A stretch of 28,073 bases of DNA, taken from positions 1 to 28,073 of IMG/VR virus record IMGVR_UViG_3300046009_000407. One strand, 5' to 3'. Each line of letters begins with the position of its first letter. Within the stretch, counting starts at the first letter, position 1. Below the pieces are notes generated by a model. It searched no databases, was not told the DNA's origin, and saw nothing but the letters and a program-made list of their open reading frames with translations. The DNA comes from a virus. This document shows, piece after piece, positions 2,408 through 26,514 of the stretch. The translations under genes and the position numbers were made by a program.

Positions 2408-2718
2408 ACCCTGAACAACTACCACCAATGCCAGAGCCTGATGGTTCTGGATACACAACAGAGCAGATGTACAGCTATGCCATGCTCTGCATCAAGGATG
2501 CCATGACCAAGGTAGCGCCTCTCATGTCAGATGCTTTAGAAAGCAGTGCTGAGAAGGGTGCAAAGATTGAGCGTGGTGCTTGCGCAATGCTGTGCTCTGA
2601 ACTTGCTACGCAGTGGAGAGCCATGGGCAAGATGGAGGGAACTAACCGAGAGAGGGTAGTAAGCTCGATAGAGGTTGCATTGCTACTGGAGTCCGCGATC
2701 AGGAACAGGGGCGAGTGA
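2404..2718 (+). CDS. Hypothetical protein between terminase genes
   Basis: This 104-residue protein overlaps the small terminase by 4 bases. It has a Pro-rich acidic start (PEQLPPMPEPDGSG), then a largely helical body with IKDAMTKVAPLMSDALE and ATQWRAMGKMEGTNRERV. No metal site, membrane span or nucleotide motif is visible. Being wedged between the two terminase subunits suggests a packaging or early role, but some phages place unrelated small genes there. Function unknown. Confidence 0.6.
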   Translation: MNPEQLPPMPEPDGSGYTTEQMYSYAMLCIKDAMTKVAPLMSDALESSAEKGAKIERGACAMLCSELATQWRAMGKMEGTNRERVVSSIEVALLLESAIRNRGE

Positions 2719-2731
2719 GGTGAACGCTCCT

Positions 2732-4297
2732 ATGTCACCAGCGGTGATGCTGGAGTTGGTCACCAAGGAGAAGCTCAGGCGCAAAGCGTCAGCAAGTCTG
2801 TATGAGTTTGTGAAGCAGAGTTGGCATGTGGTGGAGCCGGGCATTCCCTTCGTCCCAAGCTGGCACATTGAACAAATCTGCGAACACCTCGAAGCAGTCA
2901 GCGCTGGCGAGATCACACGCCTTCTGATCAACATTCCCCCAAGGCACTCCAAGTCGACCATTGTCTCGGTGATGTGGCCCATGTGGGAGTGGCTCACCAC
3001 GCCACAGCAGAAGTTCCTCTGCGCCAGCTACTCAGGCAACCTGTCAATCAGGGACAACTTAAAGGCTCGTCGCCTGATCCAGTCCCCTTGGTATCAAGAC
3101 CGCTGGGGGCACATGTTCGAGCTTGCAGGCGACCAGAACGCTAAGCAGAGGTTTGAGAACGACAAGACTGGTTACCGATTAGCCACCTCTGTTGGTGGTA
3201 CAGCTACTGGTGAGGGTGGCTCACGCCTGATCCTTGACGACCCCCATGGTGCTCAGGACGCGCAGTCTGATGCCATGCGAGAGTCAGCCCTCGAGTGGTT
3301 TGACATGGTCTGGTCTACACGACTGAACAACCCTAAGTCAGATGCCATGGTCACCATCATGCAACGCCTGCACGAAAGGGACATCTCTGGTCACATCATC
3401 GAGGACATCAAGGGGTGGGAGCACATCTGTATCCCTGCTGAGTGGGATGGGATCAAGCGCAAGACAGTGCTTGGCAACTACGACCCTCGAACTAAGATGG
3501 GCGAGTTGATCTGCCCTGAGCGCTTTGGTGAGGAAGAGGTAACTAAACTCAAGCAACTGCTAGGGGTGTACGGAACCAGTGGACAGCTACAGCAGAACCC
3601 AAGCCCTATTGAGGGTGGTATCTTGAAGACCAAGAACTTCCAGTTGTGGCCTGCTGACTCTGGCTTGCCACAGTTCGAGTACATCCTGCAAAGCTATGAC
3701 ACCGCATTCACTGAGAAGACCACAGGCGACCCCACAGCCTGCACGGTCTATGCTGTGTTCACCCAGAAGGGTGTACGCAATGTGATGCTGGTCGACGCAT
3801 GGGATGAGCACCTGAGCTACCCTGACCTGCGGGCACGAGTCATTAAGGACTGGGGGACTGAGTACGGCGATGGGGGCAAGACCAAGGATAACCCTTACGC
3901 GAGGTCTAGAAAGCCTGACAGGATTATTGTCGAGGCTAAGGCAAGTGGGCAGTCATTATTACAAGATTTGCGCTTGGCTAAAGTACCAGCCATTGGCTAT
4001 AATCCCTCAAACGCTGACAAGGTATCCCGTGCGCACCAAGCCGCTCCGACACTAGAGCTTGGTATTTTGTGGATTCCAGAGTCGCGCAAGAATCGTGGTC
4101 ACCCTGTAAGTTGGGCACAAGCATTCATGAAACAGCTTGATAAGTTCCCTGTCGCTGAGCATGACGACTATGTCGACACATTCACGCAGGCAATTATCTA
4201 CCTCAAGAATGATGGATGGTTTGAGCTACCGCAGGCTAAGGATCATGATGAGCCGAAACTGAAACAACGAGAGCGCGTAAACCCTTACGCCGTTTGA
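2732..4297 (+). CDS. Terminase large subunit
   Basis: The large terminase is the ATP-driven motor and nuclease that packs DNA into the prohead. I start it at ATG 2732 (521 residues), which has AGGTGA 8 bases upstream; GTG 2720 is an alternative. Walker A is IPPRHSKS (68-75), the form typical of this terminase group. Walker B is RLILDD (165-170). The RNase-H-like nuclease half shows Asp323 (QSYDTAF), Glu401 (IIVEAKASG) and Asp478/479 (AEHDDYVDTFTQA). All key residues are present and the length is normal for the family, so it should be active. The upstream protein ends 13 bases before. Confidence 0.95.
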   Translation: MSPAVMLELVTKEKLRRKASASLYEFVKQSWHVVEPGIPFVPSWHIEQICEHLEAVSAGEITRLLINIPPRHSKSTIVSVMWPMWEWLTTPQQKFLCASYSGNLSIRDNLKARRLIQSPWYQDRWGHMFELAGDQNAKQRFENDKTGYRLATSVGGTATGEGGSRLILDDPHGAQDAQSDAMRESALEWFDMVWSTRLNNPKSDAMVTIMQRLHERDISGHIIEDIKGWEHICIPAEWDGIKRKTVLGNYDPRTKMGELICPERFGEEEVTKLKQLLGVYGTSGQLQQNPSPIEGGILKTKNFQLWPADSGLPQFEYILQSYDTAFTEKTTGDPTACTVYAVFTQKGVRNVMLVDAWDEHLSYPDLRARVIKDWGTEYGDGGKTKDNPYARSRKPDRIIVEAKASGQSLLQDLRLAKVPAIGYNPSNADKVSRAHQAAPTLELGILWIPESRKNRGHPVSWAQAFMKQLDKFPVAEHDDYVDTFTQAIIYLKNDGWFELPQAKDHDEPKLKQRERVNPYAV

Positions 4298-4991: not shown

Positions 4992-7409
4992 ATGGCTGAT
5001 AACGAACGCGCCAGCTTTGGATTCTTTCCGCAACTGAGGAGGAACCGCACGGTTCAAGACCCAGAGGCGGCAAAGAACGCACCACTGGCGGCGTTGCGTG
5101 GGTTTGTGTCTGGGGTGGCAGGCGCACCGGGTGACCTCGAGTCCCTCGCTTACATGCCTTACGACTACCTCCGCGCTCCCAAGATGAGCGAGTTAGTCAC
5201 AGGCGAGAAGAAGACAAAGACCTTCTTTCCGACCTCCGAAGAGATCGAGAAGCGAATCCCTTTCCGTGGCGAGTCCCCTGTTGAAAAAGCATTTGCTGGC
5301 GCTGGTCAATTAGCTGGTGGCTTTTACTACGGTGCTGGCTCACCTCTAAAAGTCTTGGCTGAGTCTCCTCAGATTCTTAAGAAGGCAGGGACAGACTTTG
5401 CGCAGTCAATTGCGCCTGTCAATGTCATCAAGCCTAAAGGTGGTAATTGGGTTCTTGACCCAAGAATGGGTAGGATGAAAAGCGCTTACGACCCTGTCGA
5501 AGCTCTTGCAGATATACAAAAATTAAGAGCGCAATATGGCGATTTGCCCATGTACGCTACTGATGAAATAGAAATTAAAAATCGAATTGCAACTGACAAG
5601 TGGGTTGAAAGCAACTTAAAAAATTACATCAAGAATGAGATGGGCACGGTTGACGATCCCATTCGTTTGTTGATTGAAAAACGCGAAACTGAAATTCTAG
5701 GTAAGTTCGAGAAAGACCAAGAGCGTGCCCAGCGCATGGCAAGCAGGGCAGAAGCAGAGCCTGATCCACGCCGTAAGGCTAATATGACTCGCCAAGCTAA
5801 TCTGATGTTTGAACAGGCAGAAGCAGACAAGGCATTGGCTTTACAGCACAAGTCGCACTTGCCACCTGATCTGCAAAACCCTGAGAGCATATGGACACCA
5901 GAAGAATTGGCTAGTACACGCAAACGAGAAGGCTTCCCTGAAGAAGAGATTGGCAAGACCAAGTCCTCACAGTTGTGGGAGCAAATGGCTGACGAATCTA
6001 TTTATCCGACCAAAGCTCGCGACATCCAAGAGTACCCTGCTCGAATGGAAAGTCGAGCTAATGCCTATGCAAAACTTGCAGACTACGAATCTAAACTAGA
6101 TGCAAAACTTTTCGACAAGTTTCAAAAAGCTGGCATTGATGAGGGTGTCATAAGAAAATATTTGGCAAACAGTTTGGTCACGCACAAAGCAGATGCAATT
6201 GGTGAAGCGGATATTGCTCAAAAGCTCTTGGATAAAGTTGGCCCATTGCCAAGCAACCAACAATTCCTTGAGCAAGCAAGCACACAAAACCCATGGCTGG
6301 CAAAAGTTGATCCAAAGTCTAGTGTTTACTCTGGTGAAATTAGCGGTTTGAACTTTGACCATATTGTTGATGTGATCAAGGAAGATTTAGCCGCTGGTCG
6401 GCTTAAACCTGAAAAGCTCAACACATTGAGCATAGAGCAGGCAGTACGCAGAACGGCTGACTACGACCTTGAGTTGGCAAAGAAAATGAATGCTGATCGG
6501 GCATCTGCTCGTGCAGACTTGCCAGTCTACAAAGAGTATCCAGAAGGTTTAAGGTGGGTACAGCTCAATCGCCCTAGCGATTTTGCCGCAGAGTCAGACG
6601 CAATGGGTCATTCCGTTCGTGGCTACGAGCCACCCCAAGGCCACCCTGACTGGGTTGAAGGTTCTGGCGATAGTGGTTATTCTGGTTATGGTCTTGGCGG
6701 TTGGGATGCCATCAAGAGCGGCAAAGCCAAGGTTTACTCATTGGTCGACTCAAAGGGTGAACCACATGCAACCATTGAAGTTGGTAAAAACACATATGCA
6801 CCACGCTGGGATGATGTAAAAAAATACATGGCGGCGGCTGAGGAAGAAGCCAAGAAACTGCCAAATGGTTACACCGATGGAGATATTGCTAACATTGCTA
6901 CAAACATGGCAAGAGAAAACTCGCCTGAATTTATTAAGCAGATCAAAGGCAAAGGCAACGCTAGACCAGTCGGTAGGTACGACCAATACACTCAAGACTT
7001 TGTTAAAAGCGGAAATTGGACAAATGTTGGTGACTTAGAAAACACTGGGCTAAAACCTATTTCCAAAGTTCCTGAGCGCGAAAGATTTGAATCTGTTGGC
7101 ATGAAGTTGCCAAAATATGTGACAGATGCTGAGCATGATGAGCTGATCAATGAATATCTAAAGCTGACCAGTCATCCACCTGATTTGGACTTCATGCATA
7201 GAACATATGGGTTCCCAAAACCTGATGCACCACCAGAAGGCATGAAGCGCGGTGGCCCTGTAACTCTGGAAGACCTAGCAATGAACTACTATGTCCCAGA
7301 CTACAACGAAGACGATTATTACGAGATGCCTATGGCACTTATGCCACCCCAACAGCGCATGAGCAAGGGTGGACTGACACAATACAAGGAGTGCAACTGC
7401 CATGGCTGA
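4992..7409 (+). CDS. Large polyvalent-type protein, PcfJ-like domain (copy A)
   Basis: This 805-residue protein is the first of two homologous tandem genes. Regions in order: RASFGFFPQLRRNRT (7-21); a G/A-rich segment to about 130; VNVIKPKGGNW (about 143-153), a signature of large phage internal proteins; long helices with many K/E; a PcfJ-like segment around residues 538-590; YTQDFVKSGN and DLENTGL; then GG linkers RGGP (753-756) and KGGL (792-795), ending KECNCHG. The PcfJ-like motif reads GHSVRGY (539-545), whereas copy B has GHCVGGY. A Gly/Ser-rich insertion follows, so this copy may be inactive or altered. The likely place of action is the virion interior or the infected cell. It ends overlapping copy B by 8 bases. 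Confidence 0.68.
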   Translation: MADNERASFGFFPQLRRNRTVQDPEAAKNAPLAALRGFVSGVAGAPGDLESLAYMPYDYLRAPKMSELVTGEKKTKTFFPTSEEIEKRIPFRGESPVEKAFAGAGQLAGGFYYGAGSPLKVLAESPQILKKAGTDFAQSIAPVNVIKPKGGNWVLDPRMGRMKSAYDPVEALADIQKLRAQYGDLPMYATDEIEIKNRIATDKWVESNLKNYIKNEMGTVDDPIRLLIEKRETEILGKFEKDQERAQRMASRAEAEPDPRRKANMTRQANLMFEQAEADKALALQHKSHLPPDLQNPESIWTPEELASTRKREGFPEEEIGKTKSSQLWEQMADESIYPTKARDIQEYPARMESRANAYAKLADYESKLDAKLFDKFQKAGIDEGVIRKYLANSLVTHKADAIGEADIAQKLLDKVGPLPSNQQFLEQASTQNPWLAKVDPKSSVYSGEISGLNFDHIVDVIKEDLAAGRLKPEKLNTLSIEQAVRRTADYDLELAKKMNADRASARADLPVYKEYPEGLRWVQLNRPSDFAAESDAMGHSVRGYEPPQGHPDWVEGSGDSGYSGYGLGGWDAIKSGKAKVYSLVDSKGEPHATIEVGKNTYAPRWDDVKKYMAAAEEEAKKLPNGYTDGDIANIATNMARENSPEFIKQIKGKGNARPVGRYDQYTQDFVKSGNWTNVGDLENTGLKPISKVPERERFESVGMKLPKYVTDAEHDELINEYLKLTSHPPDLDFMHRTYGFPKPDAPPEGMKRGGPVTLEDLAMNYYVPDYNEDDYYEMPMALMPPQQRMSKGGLTQYKECNCHG

Positions 7410-10400
7410 ACAAGACAGAGCATCGTTTGGGGTATTCCCACAGCTTCGACGCAACCGCACAAGGCAAGACCCTGAAGCGGCTAAGAACATGCCACTAGAC
7501 TTCTTGCGTGGTCGTGTGGCTGGCACGCTTGGCATGGCTGGTGACATCGAAGGCTTAGCCCGCATGGTCATCCCTAATGTGAGCAATGAGCCTGTACTGC
7601 CTAACACTGAGTATTTCCAACAGCGTCTACCCCTGCGCAATGAAGCGCCAGCGTCGCGTGGTGCTGAGAACCTTGGTTCTTTGTTTGCATCGCCTGCTGT
7701 CCTGCGCACAGCCGCTAACGCGCCTAGCATTCTGCGCCGTGCCGCACAGGATTTTGCACTGGCAGGCTCACCAGTCAATGTGATCAAACCCAAGGGCGGT
7801 AACTGGTTTGACAAGAACCTGCTCAACTCAATACAAAATCTAAAAAAAGATGTGATGAGTGAGGAGCAACTTGCTGACTTTGCATCAAGGCAGAGTAAAC
7901 CCGTGGTTGACCAGTACATGCAACGCCACAATGCAGATGTTGCAATGAACAACTGGGTTGAAAACACATACAAAAACTATGTGAAGAACGAAATGGCTAC
8001 GCCTGAAGACAGGGTTCGCCAAATGTTTGACCGCCGCTCCCTTGATGTCAACAAATTGGAAGTTAAATACAACCAAGACATTGAGAAATTAGAGAAAAAG
8101 TTAGCAAAAGCGCAGGAATTACCTAAAACCGCTGAGAACGATCAGCGCATTGCTTACATTAAACGAGACATCGAAAACAAAATTGAGCAAAAAGACATCG
8201 ATATCAGCACTGCACGCCAGACAATTGGGCATGACAAGGAATTAGCCAACGAGTCTAACTATTTGGGCAGTGGAACTAGGTTGGCTCGTCAAATGGGTGG
8301 CTACCCTGAGCTTGGAATGGCTAAATCTGAGGTTGGTAAGGGGTGGGAAAATGTTGCTGACAACCTAATTGCAAAGAAAAGAGCTGGGACTATTGCCCCT
8401 AACCCTGAATACACAAAGCGCTATCCATGGTTTGATAAAGTCGACCCAGATACCATGATTTACAAGACTCAGGGTGACTTTAACAAGTACACAGGCATGG
8501 ATCATGTCATGGACATTCTGCGCCAAGACCTGCGTTCTGGTGCTTTAACGCCTGAAAAACTAAGCAAGATCACTGTTGATCAAGCTATTGAGCGTGCCGC
8601 TGACTTTGACCGTGCGGCGGCTAAAAAAATGCGTGAATCGGTTGTTAAAAACACCGAAGGCTTTCCCACTCTTAAAGAATATCCAGAAGGGTACAAGTGG
8701 GTTGAATTGACTACGCCAAAACTGCCTGATGTTTTACCAGAAGGTTGGTCTGCACCTGTGGCTAAAGGCAACGGAATTCAAACTGTATCGCCAAATGGCG
8801 ACATTGTTTTGGGTTTTGATATGCCAGACTTGATTAAGAACATTTACAGGCGACATCCAGAGACAGAAGGGAACCCTGCCAAGATGCTTGAGAAAGCCCT
8901 CAAGTACGAAGGCGACACAATGGGTCACTGTGTTGGTGGCTACTGTCCCGATGTTTTGGAAGGTAGGACTCGAATCTTTAGCTTGCGTGACAAGCGTGGT
9001 GAGCCTCATGTAACTGTGGAGGTTCAACCAAGACCAATTGACAGTTGGAAAAAATTAAAAGAAGTAGTTGGCCCAGAAAAGGGAGAGCAATTGTTTGGGG
9101 AGTTTAGCCAGTTGCCCGGCATCGATGCAGGTAACGCTATTGCAAAGTTTCAAGAATTTATTCAAAGCAAAGGCATCAAGTCTCCTGAAATTATCAACCA
9201 AATCAAAGGTAAGCAAAACCTACGGCCTATTGAAAAGTATGATCCGTACACGCAAGACTTTGTAAAAAGTGGAAACTTCTCTGATGTCAGAGACTTAGAG
9301 AATACTGGTTTGTTTAAAGCAGACCCACGGGAATTAGGGATGTTTATTCCTTCTGACCCGAGGCTTGCCAATATGCCGGGGCGCAGAACAGATGATCTTC
9401 TGAAAGCTCAGCAAGCGGGTTTATTTGGCGACCAAAAATACTTGACGCGCAATGAATGGGAAGACATTCTCCGCAAGCAAATTGAATCCGAGTCTGGCCC
9501 ACTTCCTCCATTAGAAGGCATGGCTCGTGGTGGCCCTGTGCACTTGAGCAAGGGAACCAAAGCCGCTGAGATCGTAGAAGCCACAGCCGAGGGCATCGCT
9601 AACCTGTTTGCTAAGTATTCAGGCAAAGCTCCCAAAGAAGCTAAGGAAGCCATGCCATTAGTGCTTCCAAGAGCCGCGCCAAAGACCTCGCAAGAGATCA
9701 ACGAAATTGCTGAGCGAGTAGCACGCCAGATGATTGGTGAGCATGTCACGCCACAGGGCAAGACAGTTAACTTAGCAGGACGCTCCAAGAAAGAAGCTGA
9801 GCGCGTCAAGCAACTCCAGTTTCAGCTTACGCCTACGGGCACGGTGGCGCAGGCAAAGGTGAACAACCCGCAGATTGGGGATGTGAATGTTGCGTTCCCG
9901 GGCGACCAGACCATCTCCGACACCATCCTCGACACCCTCCAAGGCGAGACTATCAACTCCCTCCAGCAAGGCGGTGCTAAGTACGGACTAGGTCAACGCC
10001 ACCTAATTGACCCTGAGTTTTGGAAGTCCAACATCGGCCCAGCCCAAGGCATCCAAGGTCGCATCGATGACCTCTACGCCAAGTACATGCCTGAGCGCAT
10101 GGTAGGTGAGCACTTAGCGATGGGGCCAATGTCTAACAACTTTGCCATGCACTTTGCGGACGCTAACCTCAAGGCGTTGGACTGGTCGAAGCTCAAGCCA
10201 AAGGATGTTGCGATTTTTGACAGCCACATTGCGGATGGCTATGTGATCAAGAAGAAAAACAAGACGACAGGTGAAGTCACAACTAAGCATGTGAAGTTCC
10301 CAGACTGGCCCGGCCTCGCCTCGCCTGACCTCGCCTTTGAAGCCATGCAAAAGAACCCAGAAATGCGCAAGTGGTTCAACAACCGCATGAAGACCCCTGA

Positions 10401-11643
10401 CCTCACTCAACCCCTTGGCTTACCCAATGGGCGTGACATCGAGTACGCGATCTCAGAGCCTGCTATCCGCAACCTCGAGATCAACATGACTGGTCTAAAC
10501 ACAGGCATCCTCAAGCCTAACGCGCCTGTCGAGCCTCTAGGTAATATCCACAACACCTACACCCATCGAATTTTGGGCGAGGCGATTGGCCCTCGTGAGG
10601 TGCTGTCACCCTTTACCATGTCATACCCTGACGCAACTGCGCATGTCTTGAGGACTCAAAGCCCTTCTGACTTTACAGGCACAATCCAGAAGGTGTTCCC
10701 ACACCAAGTAGTTGACCAACAGTACCTTGACGAGATGGGCAAGTACCAAGATCGAGTCAAGCAAATCGTTGGCTACCAAAAAGGTGGAGCGGTTAAGAAA
10801 TTCCAAGCTGGTGGCAAAGCCAAAGTAGTTAAATCATTAGCTGACCTGTTTGAGTCTTATTACCCAAAAGGCGCTAAAACAACTGTCATCGAGACTATCG
10901 AAGCGCCAGCCGTTGTAATCCCTAAAGGTATTAATAGAGTCAAAGAGGCTGTCCGTGCAACCAAAGGCGACTTTGGCGCAAGGCGTGTAGAGCGTGCGGC
11001 TGACGAGATTGCTAACCTTGAGAAGATGTTTACGGATGAGGCGCTTCGCGAAGCATTTTCTGGTGACAACGCCAAAGCTGTGATGACTATGAACCCAGCG
11101 GACTTTGAAAAATACGCCGCTCGATTGCATTACAAGAGCAGTGTTGGCCCAAATGCGGCAAAGTTAGCTAGTCAAGGTGACCTATCAAAGCACACAATGT
11201 CCACAGAAGATTACCTCAAGTACCTTCGCACATTGCCTGAAGGCTTTACTGATGTGCCCTTTTTGCAAATCAGTAAGCAAGAGACTGGCTTGCCTTTAAT
11301 GCCATACATCACAGGTCACGAAGGTCGCCATCGTAGCCGCGCCTTAGCTGGCGCTGGTGAACAAAAGAGTCTCGTGCGGTTAATGCCAAACTATGAACTG
11401 CGTGAGCCATTGCCTAGACGCTCACAAGAGGAATACATTGAGGCGCTTAAAGAAGAGATGGCTATGACTGGCAATAAAGTCAAGCCAGAGAAATACTTTG
11501 ACGACTCTTTGCCTAAAAACCTGTTGATTGAGCGCCCACCGATAGACTTGCCTGACTTCTATGCCAAAGGTGGTGCTGTCGAGTACAATCCAAAGGAAAT
11601 CGACACAATAGCGGCATCGCTATATGAGGAACTGTATGGCTGA
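7402..11643 (+). CDS. Giant polyvalent-type protein, PcfJ-like domain (copy B)
   Basis: At 1413 residues this is the largest gene here. Residues 1 to about 700 match copy A in order: RASFGVFPQLRRNRT, VNVIKPKGGNW (126-135), a helical middle, GHCVGGYCPDVLEG (508-521) with intact H509-C510-V511, REPHVTVEV-type strand, YTQDFVKSGN and DLENTGL. Then come two extra modules bounded by RGGP (709-712), KGGA (1127-1130) and KGGA (1389-1392). The middle module (about 715-1120) I do not recognise. The last (about 1135-1385) holds GHEGRHRSRALAG (1305-1317), like loops of ParB-type or polyvalent-protein domains. Such multidomain proteins are commonly injected with phage DNA. AAGGAG at 7386 serves its ATG. 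Confidence 0.68.
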   Translation: MAEQDRASFGVFPQLRRNRTRQDPEAAKNMPLDFLRGRVAGTLGMAGDIEGLARMVIPNVSNEPVLPNTEYFQQRLPLRNEAPASRGAENLGSLFASPAVLRTAANAPSILRRAAQDFALAGSPVNVIKPKGGNWFDKNLLNSIQNLKKDVMSEEQLADFASRQSKPVVDQYMQRHNADVAMNNWVENTYKNYVKNEMATPEDRVRQMFDRRSLDVNKLEVKYNQDIEKLEKKLAKAQELPKTAENDQRIAYIKRDIENKIEQKDIDISTARQTIGHDKELANESNYLGSGTRLARQMGGYPELGMAKSEVGKGWENVADNLIAKKRAGTIAPNPEYTKRYPWFDKVDPDTMIYKTQGDFNKYTGMDHVMDILRQDLRSGALTPEKLSKITVDQAIERAADFDRAAAKKMRESVVKNTEGFPTLKEYPEGYKWVELTTPKLPDVLPEGWSAPVAKGNGIQTVSPNGDIVLGFDMPDLIKNIYRRHPETEGNPAKMLEKALKYEGDTMGHCVGGYCPDVLEGRTRIFSLRDKRGEPHVTVEVQPRPIDSWKKLKEVVGPEKGEQLFGEFSQLPGIDAGNAIAKFQEFIQSKGIKSPEIINQIKGKQNLRPIEKYDPYTQDFVKSGNFSDVRDLENTGLFKADPRELGMFIPSDPRLANMPGRRTDDLLKAQQAGLFGDQKYLTRNEWEDILRKQIESESGPLPPLEGMARGGPVHLSKGTKAAEIVEATAEGIANLFAKYSGKAPKEAKEAMPLVLPRAAPKTSQEINEIAERVARQMIGEHVTPQGKTVNLAGRSKKEAERVKQLQFQLTPTGTVAQAKVNNPQIGDVNVAFPGDQTISDTILDTLQGETINSLQQGGAKYGLGQRHLIDPEFWKSNIGPAQGIQGRIDDLYAKYMPERMVGEHLAMGPMSNNFAMHFADANLKALDWSKLKPKDVAIFDSHIADGYVIKKKNKTTGEVTTKHVKFPDWPGLASPDLAFEAMQKNPEMRKWFNNRMKTPDLTQPLGLPNGRDIEYAISEPAIRNLEINMTGLNTGILKPNAPVEPLGNIHNTYTHRILGEAIGPREVLSPFTMSYPDATAHVLRTQSPSDFTGTIQKVFPHQVVDQQYLDEMGKYQDRVKQIVGYQKGGAVKKFQAGGKAKVVKSLADLFESYYPKGAKTTVIETIEAPAVVIPKGINRVKEAVRATKGDFGARRVERAADEIANLEKMFTDEALREAFSGDNAKAVMTMNPADFEKYAARLHYKSSVGPNAAKLASQGDLSKHTMSTEDYLKYLRTLPEGFTDVPFLQISKQETGLPLMPYITGHEGRHRSRALAGAGEQKSLVRLMPNYELREPLPRRSQEEYIEALKEEMAMTGNKVKPEKYFDDSLPKNLLIERPPIDLPDFYAKGGAVEYNPKEIDTIAASLYEELYG

Positions 11644-14116
11644 ACAAAACAAAGACCTAACGATCCCTGAAGATAAAGGCGAAACTGTCGAAGTCGATGA
11701 GGACTTTTCAGAGGTAGAAGATACCGAAGATGGTGGTGCGATCATTCGTGAGAAAGAGAACGACGAAGACGCACAAAAGAACCAAGCCCACTTTGCGAAC
11801 ATTGTCGACGATGTAGACCAGTCTATGCTCGTCGAGGCGACTACGGACTTGCTCGAGAAGATCGACAAGGACAAGGAAGCACGAGAGAAGCGGGACAAGC
11901 AGTACGAAGAGGGACTACGCAGGACAGGTCTGGGCGATGATGCCCCCGGGGGTGCTCAGTTCACAGGCGCTAACAAAGTCGTCCACCCCATGCTCATCGA
12001 AGCCTGCGTGGACTTCTCCGCTCGAGTCATGAAGGAGATTTTCCCTCCAAGTGGCCCAGTCAAGAGCAAGATTCAAGGCGAGAAGAACAAAGAGAAGGTC
12101 GACAAGGCAGAGCGCAAAGCCGCCTTCATGAACTGGCAGACCACTGAGCAAATGACTGAGTTCCGTGGCGAACTCGAGCAACTCAGCACCCAGCTCCCAT
12201 TAGGTGGTGGTCAGTACCTCAAGATGATGTGGAACCCACAGCACCGCAGACCAGCGGCTGAGTTCATCCCCATCGACGATGTTTACCTGCCATTTGCCGC
12301 GACTAACTTCTACAGCGCAGAGCGCAAGACCCATGTCCAGTATGTAACCAAGATGGAATACATGCGCAGGGTCAAGTCTGGCATGTACCGCGATGTCGAT
12401 GTTGGCGTGGCTGATGAGCCTGAGTACAGTAAGTCAACCCAAGCTAACGATAAGATCGAAGGTCGCAAGGAGTCCTCCTACAACGAGGATGGCCTGCGCA
12501 CAATCTTTGAGATTTACACCTACCTAGACTTTGGTGATGGCGATGAGCCTTACATCCTAAGCGTGGACAAGTCAAGTGGGCTGGCGCTGTCGCTGTACCG
12601 TAACTGGGAAGCAGACGACACTTACCGCAAAGAGCTAGACTGGATTGTGGAGTTTGGGTTCGTGCCATGGCGTGGTGCATACCCAATTGGCCTCACGCAC
12701 ATGATTGGTGGCTTGAGTGGGGCGGCTACGGGTGCTCTGAGGGCGCTGATGGATAGTGCGCATATACAGAACATTCCGACACTGCTCAAGCTCAAGGGTG
12801 GCCCCGGCGGTCAGACCATCAACCTCCAGCCCACCGAAGTCGTGGAGATGGAAGGCGGCGCACTCGTGGACGATGTCCGCAAGATCGCCATGCCAATGCC
12901 CTTCAACCCACCCTCCGCTGTGCTCTTCCAGTTGCTTGGCTTCTTGGTGGACGCAGGCAAGGGCGTTGTCCAGACCTCCTTTGAGAAGCTGAGCGACCAG
13001 AACCCTAACGCCCCTGTGGGCACAACCCTTGCCCTCATTGAGCAGGGTATGGTGGTGTTCTCATCTATTCACTCACGCCTACACTCATCGATGGCGCGTG
13101 TGTTTAAGATATTGCACCGCATCAATTCAGCCTACCTGACAGACGAAGATGTAGAGGCGCTCGAGGCTGGTTTGGACATTGAGCCTTCTGACTTTGATGG
13201 CCCGATGGATGTCATCCCTGTCAGCGATCCAGCAATCTTTAGTGAAGCACAACGATTCGCACAGATTCAGGCGATCATGCAGAGGGCGGCAGTGATGCCC
13301 CAGATGTATGACCAGCGCAATGTGGAGAAGATGTTCCTGCGCAATTTGAAGATTAGTGCGGATGAGGTGTTGCAGGCACAGCCCGGCTCTGAGGACATAG
13401 ACCCCGTCAGCGAGAATGTCGCCGCCACCATGGGTCGCCCAGTCTTTGTGATCCCCAAGCAAGACCACATGGCTCACCTCAAGACCCACCTTGCGTTCTT
13501 GAAGTCACCCCTGTTTGGTAGCAACCCAGTGATTGCACGGACATTCATGTACCCTATTGCCACGCACCTGCGTGACCACTTGCTGAACTACTACCTTGTA
13601 GAAGCTCACAACGCTGTGGACATGGCTCAACGCGAAGATTTGATTCAAGAAGATGCAGACGAGCAGGTCGCAGTGATCTTGCAAGTCCAGCAGTTTATTG
13701 AACAACAACTTGGTGCGTTTGGTCAGGAGTTGGCTCAGATTGACCAAGTGGCTCAGCAGTTCAAGCCACAGCCACCAATGCCACCAGACAAGTCAATGGA
13801 GATTGCGCAGATGAACGCGCAACTGCAAGGTCAGGCAATGCAACAGCGTGCTCAGATCGATCAGGCGAAACTGCAACTTGAACAGCAGAAACTTCAGATT
13901 GAAGCGCAGACAGATGCGCAGAAGAATCAGGAAGACATGCAGAAGGAGCAGATGCGCCAGATGTCAGAGAACGAACGCTTACTGGTGGAATTGCAAGCCA
14001 GAGAGCGCATGAACACTGCGGACAACGACACAGCGATGAGGCTTGCGGCAACGGAGCTGGCGACTGGGGAGAAGTTTGCGGTGAGTACGGGCACGGGGAT
14101 TAACCCCGGGCCGTAA
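11636..14116 (+). CDS. Portal protein
   Basis: The portal is the dodecameric ring through which DNA enters and leaves the head. I start at ATG 11636 (826 residues), 5 bases after GAGGA; the in-frame ATG at 11624 is less well placed. The N-terminal 60 residues are acidic. The body has the segments typical of large environmental portals: KVVHPMLIEACVDFSAR, PLGGGQYLKMMWN, and LFQLLGFLVDAGKGVVQ around residue 430 with GTTLALIEQGMVVFSSIH after it. The last 120 residues are a Gln-rich coiled coil (QLQGQAMQQRAQIDQAKLQ). Genomic position between internal proteins and scaffold/capsid agrees. Confidence 0.88.
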   Translation: MAEQNKDLTIPEDKGETVEVDEDFSEVEDTEDGGAIIREKENDEDAQKNQAHFANIVDDVDQSMLVEATTDLLEKIDKDKEAREKRDKQYEEGLRRTGLGDDAPGGAQFTGANKVVHPMLIEACVDFSARVMKEIFPPSGPVKSKIQGEKNKEKVDKAERKAAFMNWQTTEQMTEFRGELEQLSTQLPLGGGQYLKMMWNPQHRRPAAEFIPIDDVYLPFAATNFYSAERKTHVQYVTKMEYMRRVKSGMYRDVDVGVADEPEYSKSTQANDKIEGRKESSYNEDGLRTIFEIYTYLDFGDGDEPYILSVDKSSGLALSLYRNWEADDTYRKELDWIVEFGFVPWRGAYPIGLTHMIGGLSGAATGALRALMDSAHIQNIPTLLKLKGGPGGQTINLQPTEVVEMEGGALVDDVRKIAMPMPFNPPSAVLFQLLGFLVDAGKGVVQTSFEKLSDQNPNAPVGTTLALIEQGMVVFSSIHSRLHSSMARVFKILHRINSAYLTDEDVEALEAGLDIEPSDFDGPMDVIPVSDPAIFSEAQRFAQIQAIMQRAAVMPQMYDQRNVEKMFLRNLKISADEVLQAQPGSEDIDPVSENVAATMGRPVFVIPKQDHMAHLKTHLAFLKSPLFGSNPVIARTFMYPIATHLRDHLLNYYLVEAHNAVDMAQREDLIQEDADEQVAVILQVQQFIEQQLGAFGQELAQIDQVAQQFKPQPPMPPDKSMEIAQMNAQLQGQAMQQRAQIDQAKLQLEQQKLQIEAQTDAQKNQEDMQKEQMRQMSENERLLVELQARERMNTADNDTAMRLAATELATGEKFAVSTGTGINPGP

Positions 14117-14293: not shown

Positions 14294-14487
14294 ATTTTCC
14301 TGAGCAACTGCTCAACCGCCTCAAGTCCGACCAGCAGAAGTTTGCGCTGGATGCTTTGAAGCGCCCCCAAGAACGCAATACCTTCGAGTACGGGTATCGT
14401 GTCGGAGTCGTAGCAGGCTACGAAGCCGCCGTAAATGTACTGTTATCACTACTTGACGAGGAGAAAAATAGTGACAATGACTTATGA
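14290..14487 (+). CDS. Small hypothetical protein, GTG start
   Basis: This 65-residue protein starts at GTG 14290, overlapping the previous stop (GTGA), and has no separate ribosome binding site, so coupled translation is likely. The sequence is NFPEQLLNRLKSDQQKF at the N-terminus, then FEYGYRVGVVAGYEAAVNVL, a helical segment with a G-x3-G pattern, and an acidic end. Similar small proteins with a YGYR-G...GYE..l segment sit between portal and head genes in other phages. It overlaps the co-chaperonin gene by 17 bases. Confidence 0.65.
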   Translation: MNFPEQLLNRLKSDQQKFALDALKRPQERNTFEYGYRVGVVAGYEAAVNVLLSLLDEEKNSDNDL

Positions 14488-14878
14488 GAACGCACTGGCA
14501 GAGGCTTTTCCAGCAGTAGAAGCTGGCATTCAGCCTTTTGGAAGCCGTGTTCTGATCCAAATCCGTACCCCTATGCAAAAGTCAGCAGGTGGCATCATCA
14601 TCGACACAGGTTCTCGTGACACTGAAAAGTGGAACACACAGGTTGGAAAGGTCATCGCAATTGGCCCCCTCGCCTTCAAGAACCGAGACACGATGGCGAG
14701 TTGGCCTGAAGGTGCATGGTGCAATGACGGAGATTTTGTTCGTGTCGCAAAATATGGCGGTGACCGCTGGGAAGTAGAACTACCCACTGGTGAAAAAGCC
14801 TTATTTGTTATTTTTAATGATTTGGACATTATTGGTCGCGTTCAAGGCGATCCACTAGCTGTTCGAGCATTCATCTGA
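14471..14878 (+). CDS. Phage GroES-type co-chaperonin (Cpn10)
   Basis: This 135-residue protein has the GroES fold markers: PFGSRVLIQI (22-31), KSAGGIII (37-44), a QVGKVIAIGPLAF strand, GDFVRVAKYGGDRWEV, then LFVIFNDLDIIGRV at the C-terminus. Phage co-chaperonins such as T4 gp31 replace host GroES on GroEL to fold the phage's own capsid protein. Placement just before scaffold and capsid genes fits. GTG 14471 has GAGGAG 7 bases upstream; ATG 14477 would be too far from it. The long insertion between the 60s and 90s (FKNRDTMASWPEG) is unlike bacterial GroES and may enlarge the cap or its mobile part. Confidence 0.85.
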   Translation: MTMTYENALAEAFPAVEAGIQPFGSRVLIQIRTPMQKSAGGIIIDTGSRDTEKWNTQVGKVIAIGPLAFKNRDTMASWPEGAWCNDGDFVRVAKYGGDRWEVELPTGEKALFVIFNDLDIIGRVQGDPLAVRAFI

Positions 14879-19314: not shown

Positions 19315-19701
19315 ATGGCAAAAATGAAATATGTCAAGGACTTTGACTTCAATGAAAAGCCTTGCAACTACGAAAGTGGTGGCCCTGCTATGAAGATGGC
19401 TAAGGGTGGCTATGCTAAAGGTGGCATGAAAGAAGCCAAGACAGGCGAGATGTACGCTAGTCGCAAGGAAATGGCTAAGCACGAGAAGACTGAGTCACCT
19501 CGCATGCAAAAAGAAGAGATGATGAAGTCACAGACCGTGAAGAACATTGGCCCTCGTGGTGGTCAAGGCATGATTCCTCCTGCCCAAAAGGGTTTGGGTA
19601 TCACTGCTCCTCGCCGCCAGATGCCAGTTGCACCTCGTGAGCCTATGATTGCTCCCTTTAAAAAGGGTGGTAAGGCAATGAAAGCAAAAGTTAATTGTTA
19701 A
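19315..19701 (+). CDS. Basic K-G-G repeat protein, likely packaged or internal
   Basis: This 128-residue protein is rich in Lys and Met. It carries repeated G-G strings: ESGGPAMKMAKGGYAKGGMK (20-39), GPRGGQG (about 79-85) and FKKGGKAMKAKVNC at the C-terminus. The same K/R-G-G-x strings form the linkers of the two large proteins upstream and one occurs in the scaffold. No hydrophobic core is visible, so it is probably disordered. Such proteins are frequent in marine and freshwater phage genomes with unknown function. DNA neutralisation in the head or a substrate of a processing protease are options. It closes the unit before the promoter at 19726. Confidence 0.65.
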   Translation: MAKMKYVKDFDFNEKPCNYESGGPAMKMAKGGYAKGGMKEAKTGEMYASRKEMAKHEKTESPRMQKEEMMKSQTVKNIGPRGGQGMIPPAQKGLGITAPRRQMPVAPREPMIAPFKKGGKAMKAKVNC

Positions 19702-24201: not shown

Positions 24202-25344
24202 ATGTCTATAAGACAAATGTTCTTGGGGAGCATAGTTAAGCCGGGGTTCAATCCTCTAGCGGCTCAGACTACAACCACTTTTTACAACTTATATAGTTGG
24301 GGAAGAAATGGTCAGGGTCAGCTAGGTCTTGGAAATAGAACAGATTATTCATCCCCCAAACAAGTTGGCTCTTTAACTGATTGGTTAACTGTTGTTGGTG
24401 GTCAATACGATAGTTTTTCTGTTAAAAATGATGGTAGTCTTTGGGATTGGGGTTGGAATAATAATGCTCAGTTAGGTCTTGGAAACACGACTCAATATTC
24501 AAGTCCCAAACAAGTTGGCGCTCTTATAACTTGGTCTAAGATAGCAACTTCTAAAGCATATTACTCCACATTAGCTGTTAAAACTGACGGTACTTTATGG
24601 AGTTGGGGTAACAGTAGTTTTGGTCAATTAGGTCTTGGAAACTTAACAGCTTATTCATCCCCAAAACAAATTGGCGCTTTAACTAATTGGTTAAGTGTTA
24701 CTGGTTCTTATGCCTCATTCATGGCAGTAAAAACTAATGGAACATTGTGGGCTTGGGGAAATAATATTAACGGTCAACTTGGACAGGGAAATGTAACAAG
24801 ATATTCTAGCCCCAAGCAAATTGGTTCTTTGACTAATTGGTTGCAAGTATCTGGTTGTTATTTAGCAGTTGCCGCAATTAAAACAGATGGAACAATGTGG
24901 TCTTGGGGCGCTAATAATGAAGGCCAACTAGGTCTTGGTAATGGCACATATTATTCCTCTCCTAAACAGATTGGCGCTTTGACTAATTGGTCTAAACTTT
25001 CTGTAAATGGCGGCAGTAACAATGGTTTTTTAGCTGTTAAAACAGACGGAACATTGTGGGCTTGGGGGTCAAATGGCTCTGGTCAATTGGGCGATGGAAC
25101 TAGAACAAATCGTAATTCTCCTGTACAGATTGGTGCACTAACTAATTGGTCAATTGTTGCTACTGGGCAGGCTTTTTCTCTTTCAATTAAAACAGATGGT
25201 ACTCTTTGGTCTTGGGGTCGAGGAAGTTCAGGTCAATTGGGGTTTAATAATTTAACTTATTACTCTTCCCCAAAACAAGTTGGCTCGTCAACAACATGGC
25301 TTGCAGTTGCGGCAGGGGAACGACATACTCTGGCTCTAGGATAA
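24202..25344 (+). CDS. RCC1-type seven-bladed beta-propeller, tail-associated (first)
   Basis: This 380-residue protein contains seven tandem repeats of about 50 residues, each built as W/Y-x-W-G, GQLGLGN, YSSPKQ(V/I)G, a(L)TNW, then (A/S)VKTDGTL. WG positions occur at YSWG, WDWG, WSWG, WAWG, WSWG, WAWG, WSWG, so a full seven-blade disc is predicted. RCC1 propellers are exchange factors or binding scaffolds in other settings; in a tail region a ligand-binding receptor-recognition disc is likely. The first 30 residues (start MSIRQMFLGSIVKPGFNPLA) may attach it to the tail. Base composition is visibly AT-richer than the head genes, suggesting recent acquisition. Confidence 0.8.
   Translation: MSIRQMFLGSIVKPGFNPLAAQTTTTFYNLYSWGRNGQGQLGLGNRTDYSSPKQVGSLTDWLTVVGGQYDSFSVKNDGSLWDWGWNNNAQLGLGNTTQYSSPKQVGALITWSKIATSKAYYSTLAVKTDGTLWSWGNSSFGQLGLGNLTAYSSPKQIGALTNWLSVTGSYASFMAVKTNGTLWAWGNNINGQLGQGNVTRYSSPKQIGSLTNWLQVSGCYLAVAAIKTDGTMWSWGANNEGQLGLGNGTYYSSPKQIGALTNWSKLSVNGGSNNGFLAVKTDGTLWAWGSNGSGQLGDGTRTNRNSPVQIGALTNWSIVATGQAFSLSIKTDGTLWSWGRGSSGQLGFNNLTYYSSPKQVGSSTTWLAVAAGERHTLALG
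24340..24369 (+). repeat. 30-base exact direct repeat shared by the RCC1 genes, copy 1
   Basis: Positions 24340-24369 and 25816-25845 are identical over 30 bases, 1476 bases apart, in equivalent parts of a blade (D-YSSPKQVG). Blade DNA elsewhere differs at wobble positions, so this perfect match stands out. It is a plausible site for recombination between the two genes. Confidence 0.7.
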
Positions 25345-25347
25345 ATC

Positions 25348-26514
25348 ATGGCAGTAACAGTAACCACAGGCGTTCAATACTCAGGCATCTGGACAATGCA
25401 ACAGGTGAATGCCGCTATTGCGGCTGGGACTTGGCCTGTCGGAAGCCCTAATCGTTTGTACTCATTTGGTGCAAACAATCAAGGTCAACTCGGCCTTGGA
25501 AATACTACCTCTTACTCATCTCCCAAACAAATTGGGACAGGAAATAGATGGCTTCGTGTCAATGGCGCTATGGATGGCGGTCATATGCTGTCTGTTTTTT
25601 CAACTGGTGCTTTGTATGCTTGGGGTCAAAATGATCGTGGTCAACTTGGTCTTAGTAACAGTTCTTATGGTGTAAGCAGTCCTACTCAAGTTGGAGCATT
25701 GACTAATTGGTCAACAACTTCAGGTGGATATGCTTGTACTCTTGCGGTCAAAACTGATGGTACTTTATGGTCATGGGGACGAGGTGATAATGGTGTTCTT
25801 GGCTTAGGCAATGTTACAGATTATTCATCCCCCAAACAAGTTGGCGCATTGACTGGCTGGTCTTCCGTTGCGGCTGGACAAGATTCTAGCTATGCCATTA
25901 AAACAGATGGTACTTTATGGGCGTGGGGTTCTGGTGGTTCTGGTGCTTTGGGTCTAGGCAACACTACTAGCTATTCCTCTCCAAAACAAGTGGGTGCTTT
26001 AACAAGTTGGTTGCAAGTGGTTGGTGGTTACGGATGGGCTTTTGCTATTCGTTCTGACAATACAATTTGGGCGTGGGGCAGAGGTGGGCAAGGTCAGCTT
26101 GGAAATAGCAATACATTTGATCGTTCTTCACCAGTTCAAATTGGAGCTTTAACTAATTGGTCTTCTGGCGCGGCTGGTCAACAATCTGGTTATGGGATTA
26201 AAACCGATGGCACTATGTGGGCATGGGGTAACAATGGTCAAGGTCGTTTAGGAATTGGAACGGCGGTAAACAATTCATCTCCAGTTCAAGTTGGTGCATT
26301 GACTACTTGGTTAAAAGTTTGTTCTGGAAAATATCAAGCGTACGCTGTAAAAACTGACGGGACTTTATGGTCTTGGGGTGACGGAAGTGGTGGAAAATTG
26401 GGTCTTGGAAATACAACAACTTATTCATCTCCAGTGCAAATTGGTTCATCTACCAATTGGATTGCGATACCATCACAAGTTCAAGTCTCATTTGCCGCAA
26501 TAACAACAGCATAA
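25348..26514 (+). CDS. RCC1-type seven-bladed beta-propeller, tail-associated (second)
   Basis: This 388-residue paralog of the gene before it starts 4 bases after that gene's stop. It opens VTTGVQYSGIWTMQQVNAA then AIAAGTWP, a segment I know from phage fibre and tail proteins. It then has seven propeller repeats beginning YSFG, YAWG, WSWG, WAWG, WAWG, WAWG, WSWG. Its blades vary more than the first gene's (VSSPTQVG, FDRSSPVQIG, AVNNSSPVQVG). Both genes share an exact 30-base stretch. Surface loops between shared strands are the likely variable receptor-contact positions. Confidence 0.8.
   Translation: MAVTVTTGVQYSGIWTMQQVNAAIAAGTWPVGSPNRLYSFGANNQGQLGLGNTTSYSSPKQIGTGNRWLRVNGAMDGGHMLSVFSTGALYAWGQNDRGQLGLSNSSYGVSSPTQVGALTNWSTTSGGYACTLAVKTDGTLWSWGRGDNGVLGLGNVTDYSSPKQVGALTGWSSVAAGQDSSYAIKTDGTLWAWGSGGSGALGLGNTTSYSSPKQVGALTSWLQVVGGYGWAFAIRSDNTIWAWGRGGQGQLGNSNTFDRSSPVQIGALTNWSSGAAGQQSGYGIKTDGTMWAWGNNGQGRLGIGTAVNNSSPVQVGALTTWLKVCSGKYQAYAVKTDGTLWSWGDGSGGKLGLGNTTTYSSPVQIGSSTNWIAIPSQVQVSFAAITTA
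25816..25845 (+). repeat. 30-base exact direct repeat shared by the RCC1 genes, copy 2
   Basis: This second copy lies in blade 3 of the second propeller gene, whereas copy 1 lies in blade 1 of the first. Crossover between them would delete or duplicate a set of blades (1476 bases) and join the first gene's start to the second gene's later blades in the same reading frame, since 1476 is a multiple of three. Confidence 0.7.

What the first reader, a model, noticed from the sequence alone, without database searches (positions are those of the whole stretch)
4992..11643. Tandem polyvalent-type paralogs; PcfJ-like cysteine lost in copy A
Seen: 805- and 1413-residue proteins are homologous from the N-terminus (RASFG.FPQLRRNRT) through VNVIKPKGGNW to YTQDFVKSGN and DLENTGL, with many wobble differences, so the likeness is kept at protein level. 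At the PcfJ-like core, copy B has GHCVGGY (508-514) and copy A GHSVRGY (539-545), with a Gly/Ser-rich insertion after it. If the H-C pair is an active or metal-binding site, copy A may be a decoy, regulator or structural partner of B. The C-terminal extension in B is unique.
Basis: partly seen in the sequence, partly recalled or inferred. Interest (0 to 1): 0.68.

Follow-up and report, generated by a model that had tools for sequence, protein, structure and literature searches.

The report
Paired phage PcfJ-like modular proteins
Two neighbouring phage genes encode related, mosaic, multi-part proteins that probably act early in infection; one belongs to an old, widespread branch of the PcfJ family in which an otherwise universal cysteine has become a serine, so it looks like a re-purposed version and not a damaged copy or a decoy of its neighbour.

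Summary
A (805 aa) and B (1413 aa) are tandem paralogs sharing an N-terminal module and a PcfJ-like module. B has GHCVGGY; A has GHSVRGY plus a 25-residue insertion. Only B matches Pfam PcfJ.

The change is old. Of 128 distinct phage modules, 72 are H-C and 55 H-S. H-S is one clade nested among H-C, with its own invariant residues and purifying selection. All 16 bacterial and plasmid PcfJ copies examined keep the Cys; H-S modules keep the rest of the family signature.

A as decoy or partner of B is not supported as a rule: ten 49-68 kb records carry H-S with no H-C copy, and both types occupy the same TerL-portal slot.

Both proteins look polyvalent: modules are permuted among phages, relatives carry ART-PolyVal or LPD23, and module-exchange junctions at four places fall on [MY]xxGG linkers.

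Best reading, partly inferred: virion-packaged, injected multi-module effectors; B's module uses the H-C pair, A is a neofunctionalised serine version. Packaging, activity and targets are untested, and the PcfJ module has no confident match to a solved structure.

The parts
4992..7409 (+). Copy A, 805 aa: N-module, PcfJ module of H-S type, short GG-linked tail
   Evidence: no Pfam, PHROGs, NCBIfam or PADLOC match
6606..6626 (+). A residues 539-545, GHSVRGY: serine where the family has cysteine
6627..6704 (+). A residues 546-571, EPPQGHPDWVEGSGDSGYSGYGLGGW: contains the insertion typical of the H-S clade, modelled with pLDDT about 92
7242..7262 (+). A residues 751-757, MKRGGPV: GG linker at a cassette-exchange junction
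7402..11643 (+). Copy B, 1413 aa: N-module, PcfJ module of H-C type, M1, M2, GG-linked tail
8896..9033 (+). Pfam PcfJ (PF14284) match in B, residues 499-544
8923..8943 (+). B residues 508-514, GHCVGGY: conserved His-Cys pair
   Evidence: local pLDDT about 66
9520..9540 (+). B residues 707-713, MARGGPV: GG linker at a cassette-exchange junction
9547..10773 (+). M1 module of B (about residues 716-1124), unnamed, found in other orders in relatives
10774..10794 (+). B residues 1125-1131, YQKGGAV: GG linker at a cassette-exchange junction
10816..11592 (+). M2 module of B (residues 1139-1397) with invariant GHEGRHR; replaced by an unrelated cassette in L003 and L004
   Evidence: no family named by Pfam
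11560..11580 (+). B residues 1387-1393, YAKGGAV: GG linker at a cassette-exchange junction
2675..4297 (+). Terminase large subunit, upstream border of the slot
11624..14116 (+). Portal protein, downstream border of the slot (start possibly 11636, overlapping B's stop)

Best explanation
A and B are two adjacent polyvalent-type proteins of a tailed phage, encoded in the packaging operon and probably carried in the head and injected with the DNA. Each is a chain of exchangeable modules. The shared unit is an N-module followed by a PcfJ-like module. In B the PcfJ module keeps the His-Cys pair of the PcfJ family and is probably an enzyme or metal-dependent site acting on a host component early in infection. 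In A the module belongs to an old branch in which Cys became Ser and a 25-residue ordered loop was added, while the other signature residues (Glu, His, Tyr, Thr, Gln, Asn) stay. A is therefore most likely an independent, neofunctionalised effector (serine chemistry or binding only), and the window carries two alternative effector units side by side. Shown: homology, clade structure, conservation, locus, module exchange. Inferred: packaging, injection, enzymatic activity, target.
For: 72 H-C and 55 H-S modules, one other, with H-S-specific invariants ES..MGHS, GYEP and YGxGG (the groups were named by the motif, so the motif itself is invariant by definition, but a motif-free pattern gives the same split). 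H-S is one branch, SH-aLRT 100, among H-C modules. Family signature kept apart from the Cys. dN/dS about 0.2-0.3 for A against its orthologs. All four TCN serine codons are in use at the position. Same TerL-portal slot for both types. Both types in tandem or fused in a few phages: window, L002, L004, L093. Polyvalent hallmarks: permuted modules, ART-PolyVal in 11 and LPD23 in 4 of 27 relatives. Swap junctions at GG linkers. Plasmid PcfJ genes lie directly downstream of an AcrIIA9-family gene twice, which fits a conflict role.
Against: No virion proteomics was found. No domain of known activity is detected in A or B themselves. No solved structure resembles the PcfJ module confidently. No function for PcfJ turned up in the papers searched.
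Confidence: 0.55

Rival explanations
1. A is a decoy, regulator or structural partner of B: it binds B's substrate or B itself through the same fold without catalysis.
For: A and B overlap and are probably translationally coupled; the H-S then H-C order recurs in the window, L002, L004 and, fused, in L093.
Against: Ten 49-68 kb records have only an H-S module and eleven only an H-C module; the H-S clade is old and widespread; H-S with H-S and H-C with H-C pairs also exist.
Confidence: 0.12
2. The PcfJ module is a non-enzymatic scaffold or binding domain in both copies; the Cys is structural (metal or packing) and Ser is tolerated in a rearranged site.
For: No enzyme fold found; a second Cys (C515) and a His (H536) are also near-invariant in the H-C phage group, and C515 is lost in H-S, as expected for a remodelled metal site.
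Against: The second Cys is absent from bacterial and plasmid PcfJ, where the first is still universal, so a Cys-Cys metal site cannot be the family-wide role.
Confidence: 0.25
3. A and B are structural or ejection-apparatus proteins of the virion (internal head or conduit proteins) and not effectors.
For: Position between TerL and portal; the A model is mainly long helices before the PcfJ module; one alternative cassette in L004 and L007 is Gly-rich and strand-like by eye.
Against: Caulobacter phage RW and Planktothrix phage Pag-Yong1, with related portals, have no such gene between TerL and portal; module content is highly variable, and ART-PolyVal, GDSL lipase and endolysin-like modules occur in relatives.
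Confidence: 0.18
4. A is a decaying duplicate.
For: The family Cys is missing and Pfam does not recognise A.
Against: Intact frame, dN/dS 0.2-0.3 and invariant clade-specific residues in more than 50 distinct sequences.
Confidence: 0.02

Closest known systems
PcfJ-like family, Pfam PF14284 (named after PcfJ of Enterococcus plasmid pCF10; the name's origin is from memory)
   Same: B 499-544 matches over the curated cut-off; E, H-C, Y, T, Q and N signature shared with plasmid and bacterial copies
   Different: In these phages it is one module in proteins of about 700-2800 aa; A lacks the Cys, has a 25-residue insertion and is not recognised by the Pfam model
Polyvalent proteins of phages and conjugative elements (Iyer et al. 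2017, PMC5512222)
   Same: Many modules per chain, permuted between phages, late-gene location, ART-PolyVal and LPD23 modules in relatives
   Different: That paper does not mention PcfJ; none of the named polyvalent domains is detected in A or B themselves
PcfJ-like protein of Phage DSL-LC04 (WJZ48068.1; phage described in PMC10611076)
   Same: Same slot between TerL and portal; N- and PcfJ modules of H-C type; GG motifs
   Different: Single copy of 825 aa, no M1 or M2 match; about 25-27% identical
Inactive PBECR domain of Mu MuF, cited in PMC5512222
   Same: Precedent for a polyvalent-associated domain with active and inactivated versions among orthologs
   Different: Unrelated domain

Membership tests
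PcfJ-like (PF14284) | Match to the Pfam model over its cut-off, copy B | tested here: met
   29.6 bits against 25
PcfJ-like (PF14284) | Match to the Pfam model over its cut-off, copy A | tested here: not met
   No match at E up to 1; related through the B-like clade only
PcfJ-like (PF14284) | His-Cys pair, copy B | tested here: met
   H509-C510; Cys in 16 of 16 and His in 15 of 16 bacterial or plasmid copies
PcfJ-like (PF14284) | His-Cys pair, copy A | tested here: not met
   His-Ser in A and its whole clade
Polyvalent proteins | Several distinct modules in one chain, recombined between elements | tested here: met
Polyvalent proteins | Named polyvalent catalytic or LPD domains | tested here: inconclusive
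   Present in relatives with the same N-PcfJ unit, not detected in A or B
Polyvalent proteins | Packaged and delivered with the DNA | not testable with these tools
   Only gene position supports it
GNAT acetyltransferases | Detectable fold or profile similarity of the PcfJ module | tested here: not met
   Many GNATs among hits at E above 0.1 for both models, but profile comparison gives probability 0.1% in one direction and 1.5% in the other
ParB/Srx superfamily, for M2 | Match to ParB_N | tested here: not met
   No ParB match in any of 14 M2 domains; the GHEGRHR motif is only reminiscent

The most novel reading that the evidence does not exclude
These phages carry an exchangeable effector polyprotein: modules are joined by [MFY]xxGG linkers that serve both as junctions for cassette exchange and as processing sites that free the modules after packaging or injection; within it the PcfJ module exists in a cysteine and a serine form that do different chemistry and are used alternatively, or together as in the window.
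Probability: 0.2. Interest if true: 0.75.

Novelty: new variant of a known kind. Interest (0 to 1): 0.5.

Why it matters
PcfJ occurs on conjugative plasmids and in phages, yet the papers searched give no function for it. A natural cysteine-to-serine branch with the rest of the signature conserved gives direct comparison pairs (A and B of one phage) to find out what the His-Cys pair does. The phages also add PcfJ to the polyvalent-protein repertoire and show, between near-identical relatives, where modules are exchanged.

Tried and rejected
Multiple alignment that pairs B's GHCVGGY with A's GYGLGGW: rejected after profile alignment and secondary structure. GNAT fold for the PcfJ module, suggested by weak hits of both models: not supported by profile comparison. 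M2 as ParB from its GHEGRHR motif: no Pfam support. LPD23 as the name of the shared N-module: the match in L175 lies in a region that does not align with the conserved parts of A and B. Bacterial host from genome scan: only one contig of a Nitrosomonadales bin matched, likely a phage contig. Promoter and terminator scan gave chance numbers. PADLOC and NCBIfam: no match. Literature on PcfJ in phages and on GG-type phage polyproteins: nothing relevant found.

Full report
What is there. The window is a 28,073-base virus record. Genes run in one direction: terminase large subunit (2675-4297), two small ORFs, A (4992-7409), B (7402-11643), portal (11624 or 11636 to 14116), a GroES-like chaperonin, a probable scaffold, major capsid protein, then tail genes. 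A and B overlap by 8 nt, as do B and the portal gene if the portal starts at 11636, each time in the string ATGGCTGA, which fits translational coupling.

Homology of A and B. BLASTP gives E 1e-48 and 6e-42. Synonymous positions are saturated between A and B, while A against its orthologs in L004, L002 and L029 has dN/dS of about 0.2-0.3, and B against L002 and L004 0.13-0.29. Both copies are under purifying selection.

The H-C and H-S question. After removing near-copies there were 72 of H-C type, 55 of H-S type and one other (L009, NVGCQGGWC). The groups were named by the motif, so its invariance inside each group is by definition; a pattern that leaves the residue after His free gives the same split (C 72, S 55). 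The independent facts are these. The H-S group has further invariants that the H-C group lacks (ES before the motif, GYEP after it, then SG, YGxGG and IK), and mostly lacks the R of SLRD. On the tree the H-S rows form one branch with SH-aLRT 100; under midpoint rooting it lies inside the H-C rows, and the distant DSL-LC04 row is H-C (a quick tree without bootstrap, motif columns included). At the serine, 68 of 69 distinct modules use TCN codons, in all four synonyms, and one uses AGC.

Comparison with PcfJ elsewhere. In 16 bacterial and plasmid PcfJ proteins the Cys is kept in all and the His in 15 (N-C in L205). H-S modules keep the Glu, His, Tyr, Thr, Gln and Asn of the family signature (a few bacterial copies vary at Tyr, Gln or Asn). 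The loss of Cys in A is therefore precise, ancient and shared.

Not a fixed partner of B. Of 21 records of 46-68 kb searched whole, ten have an H-S module only and eleven an H-C module only. Completeness of these records is not stated, so a missed second copy cannot be excluded in single cases. Tandem or fused combinations exist as H-S then H-C (window, L002, L004, L093; split frame in L178), H-S with H-S (L159) and H-C with H-C (L061). Where the contig allows the test, TerL lies within 2.5 kb upstream for 86 of 87 H-S proteins and 74 of 83 H-C proteins, and further upstream for the rest (loci not deduplicated, and B itself counts among the latter because A lies between). H-S and H-C proteins fill one slot.

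Modules and linkers. HMMs for the N-module, PcfJ module, M1 and M2 find them in many orders: N-PcfJ, N-PcfJ-M1, N-PcfJ-M1-M2, M1-N-PcfJ, M2-M1-N-PcfJ and double units. Comparison of the window with close relatives shows blocks of 90-100% identity interrupted by replaced blocks. In L003 and L004 the M2 cassette of B is replaced by an unrelated one, with breakpoints at residues 1126 (YQKGG) and 1388 (YAKGG); other breakpoints are at B 707 (MARGG) and A 748 (PEGMKRGG). Further breakpoints flank the conserved core inside the PcfJ module, at variable loops, and follow DLENTGL. GG pairs are twice as frequent in linkers as in modules over 147 proteins (14.8 against 7.2 per 1000 residues). The motif is enriched over shuffles in B and in a 128-aa protein at 19315-19701, not significantly in A, and not in the portal or tail protein. 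Exchange at the linkers is shown; processing at them is a guess.

Polyvalent character. Of 27 diverse relatives, 14 match PcfJ, 11 ART-PolyVal (best 6.5e-43), 4 LPD23, 3 ParB_N and 2 GDSL lipase. This places the proteins among polyvalent proteins (PMC5512222), a class that includes the head-packaged P1 DdrB; that paper does not mention PcfJ. For A and B the inclusion rests on architecture, locus and relatives.

Structure. AlphaFold2 models of B 335-1130 (pLDDT 86.7) and A 1-710 (85.3) were made from alignments of 70 and 43 rows. The H-C or H-S motif follows a helix and precedes a pair of strands in both. The B loop has local pLDDT near 66; the A loop with its insertion is near 90. No solved structure matched at E 0.001; among viral models the matches are phage proteins, several annotated PcfJ-like.

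Context of PcfJ on plasmids. On two Gram-positive plasmids PcfJ lies directly downstream of an AcrIIA9-family gene; AcrIIA9 carries the PcfK domain (PMC6739104). This is guilt by association, and fits a role in conflict between mobile elements and hosts.

Conclusion. The sequence observation is right.

Noticed in passing
24202-25344 and 25348-26514: Two tandem proteins made almost wholly of RCC1-type repeats (Pfam E 3.7e-68 and 3.3e-62), at the tail end of the structural genes; possibly receptor-binding or decoration proteins.
   Followed up: no
19315-19701: A 128-aa, Lys/Met-rich protein with several copies of the same [MFY]xxGG motif that joins the modules of A and B.
   Followed up: partly
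14435-14878: GroES-like co-chaperonin (Cpn10, E 2.2e-8) directly after the portal gene; a GroES gene lies near the portal in distant relatives too.
   Followed up: partly
L009:3247-5397: Copy A ortholog whose ends are about 95% identical to the window's A but whose PcfJ core is of a third kind (NVGCQGGWC, no H-C or H-S).
   Followed up: partly
L004:5765-9793 and L007:1-4032, C-terminal parts: A Gly-rich, strand-like cassette of about 160 aa (with NIPLGGGNLNLGVNFNKLS) replaces or follows M2; no Pfam match.
   Followed up: partly
L226 and L229: Plasmid PcfJ genes directly downstream of an AcrIIA9-family anti-CRISPR gene.
   Followed up: partly
L178:3517-9563: An H-S module followed by an H-C module that is split over two overlapping frames, perhaps a frameshift or assembly error.
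   Followed up: no
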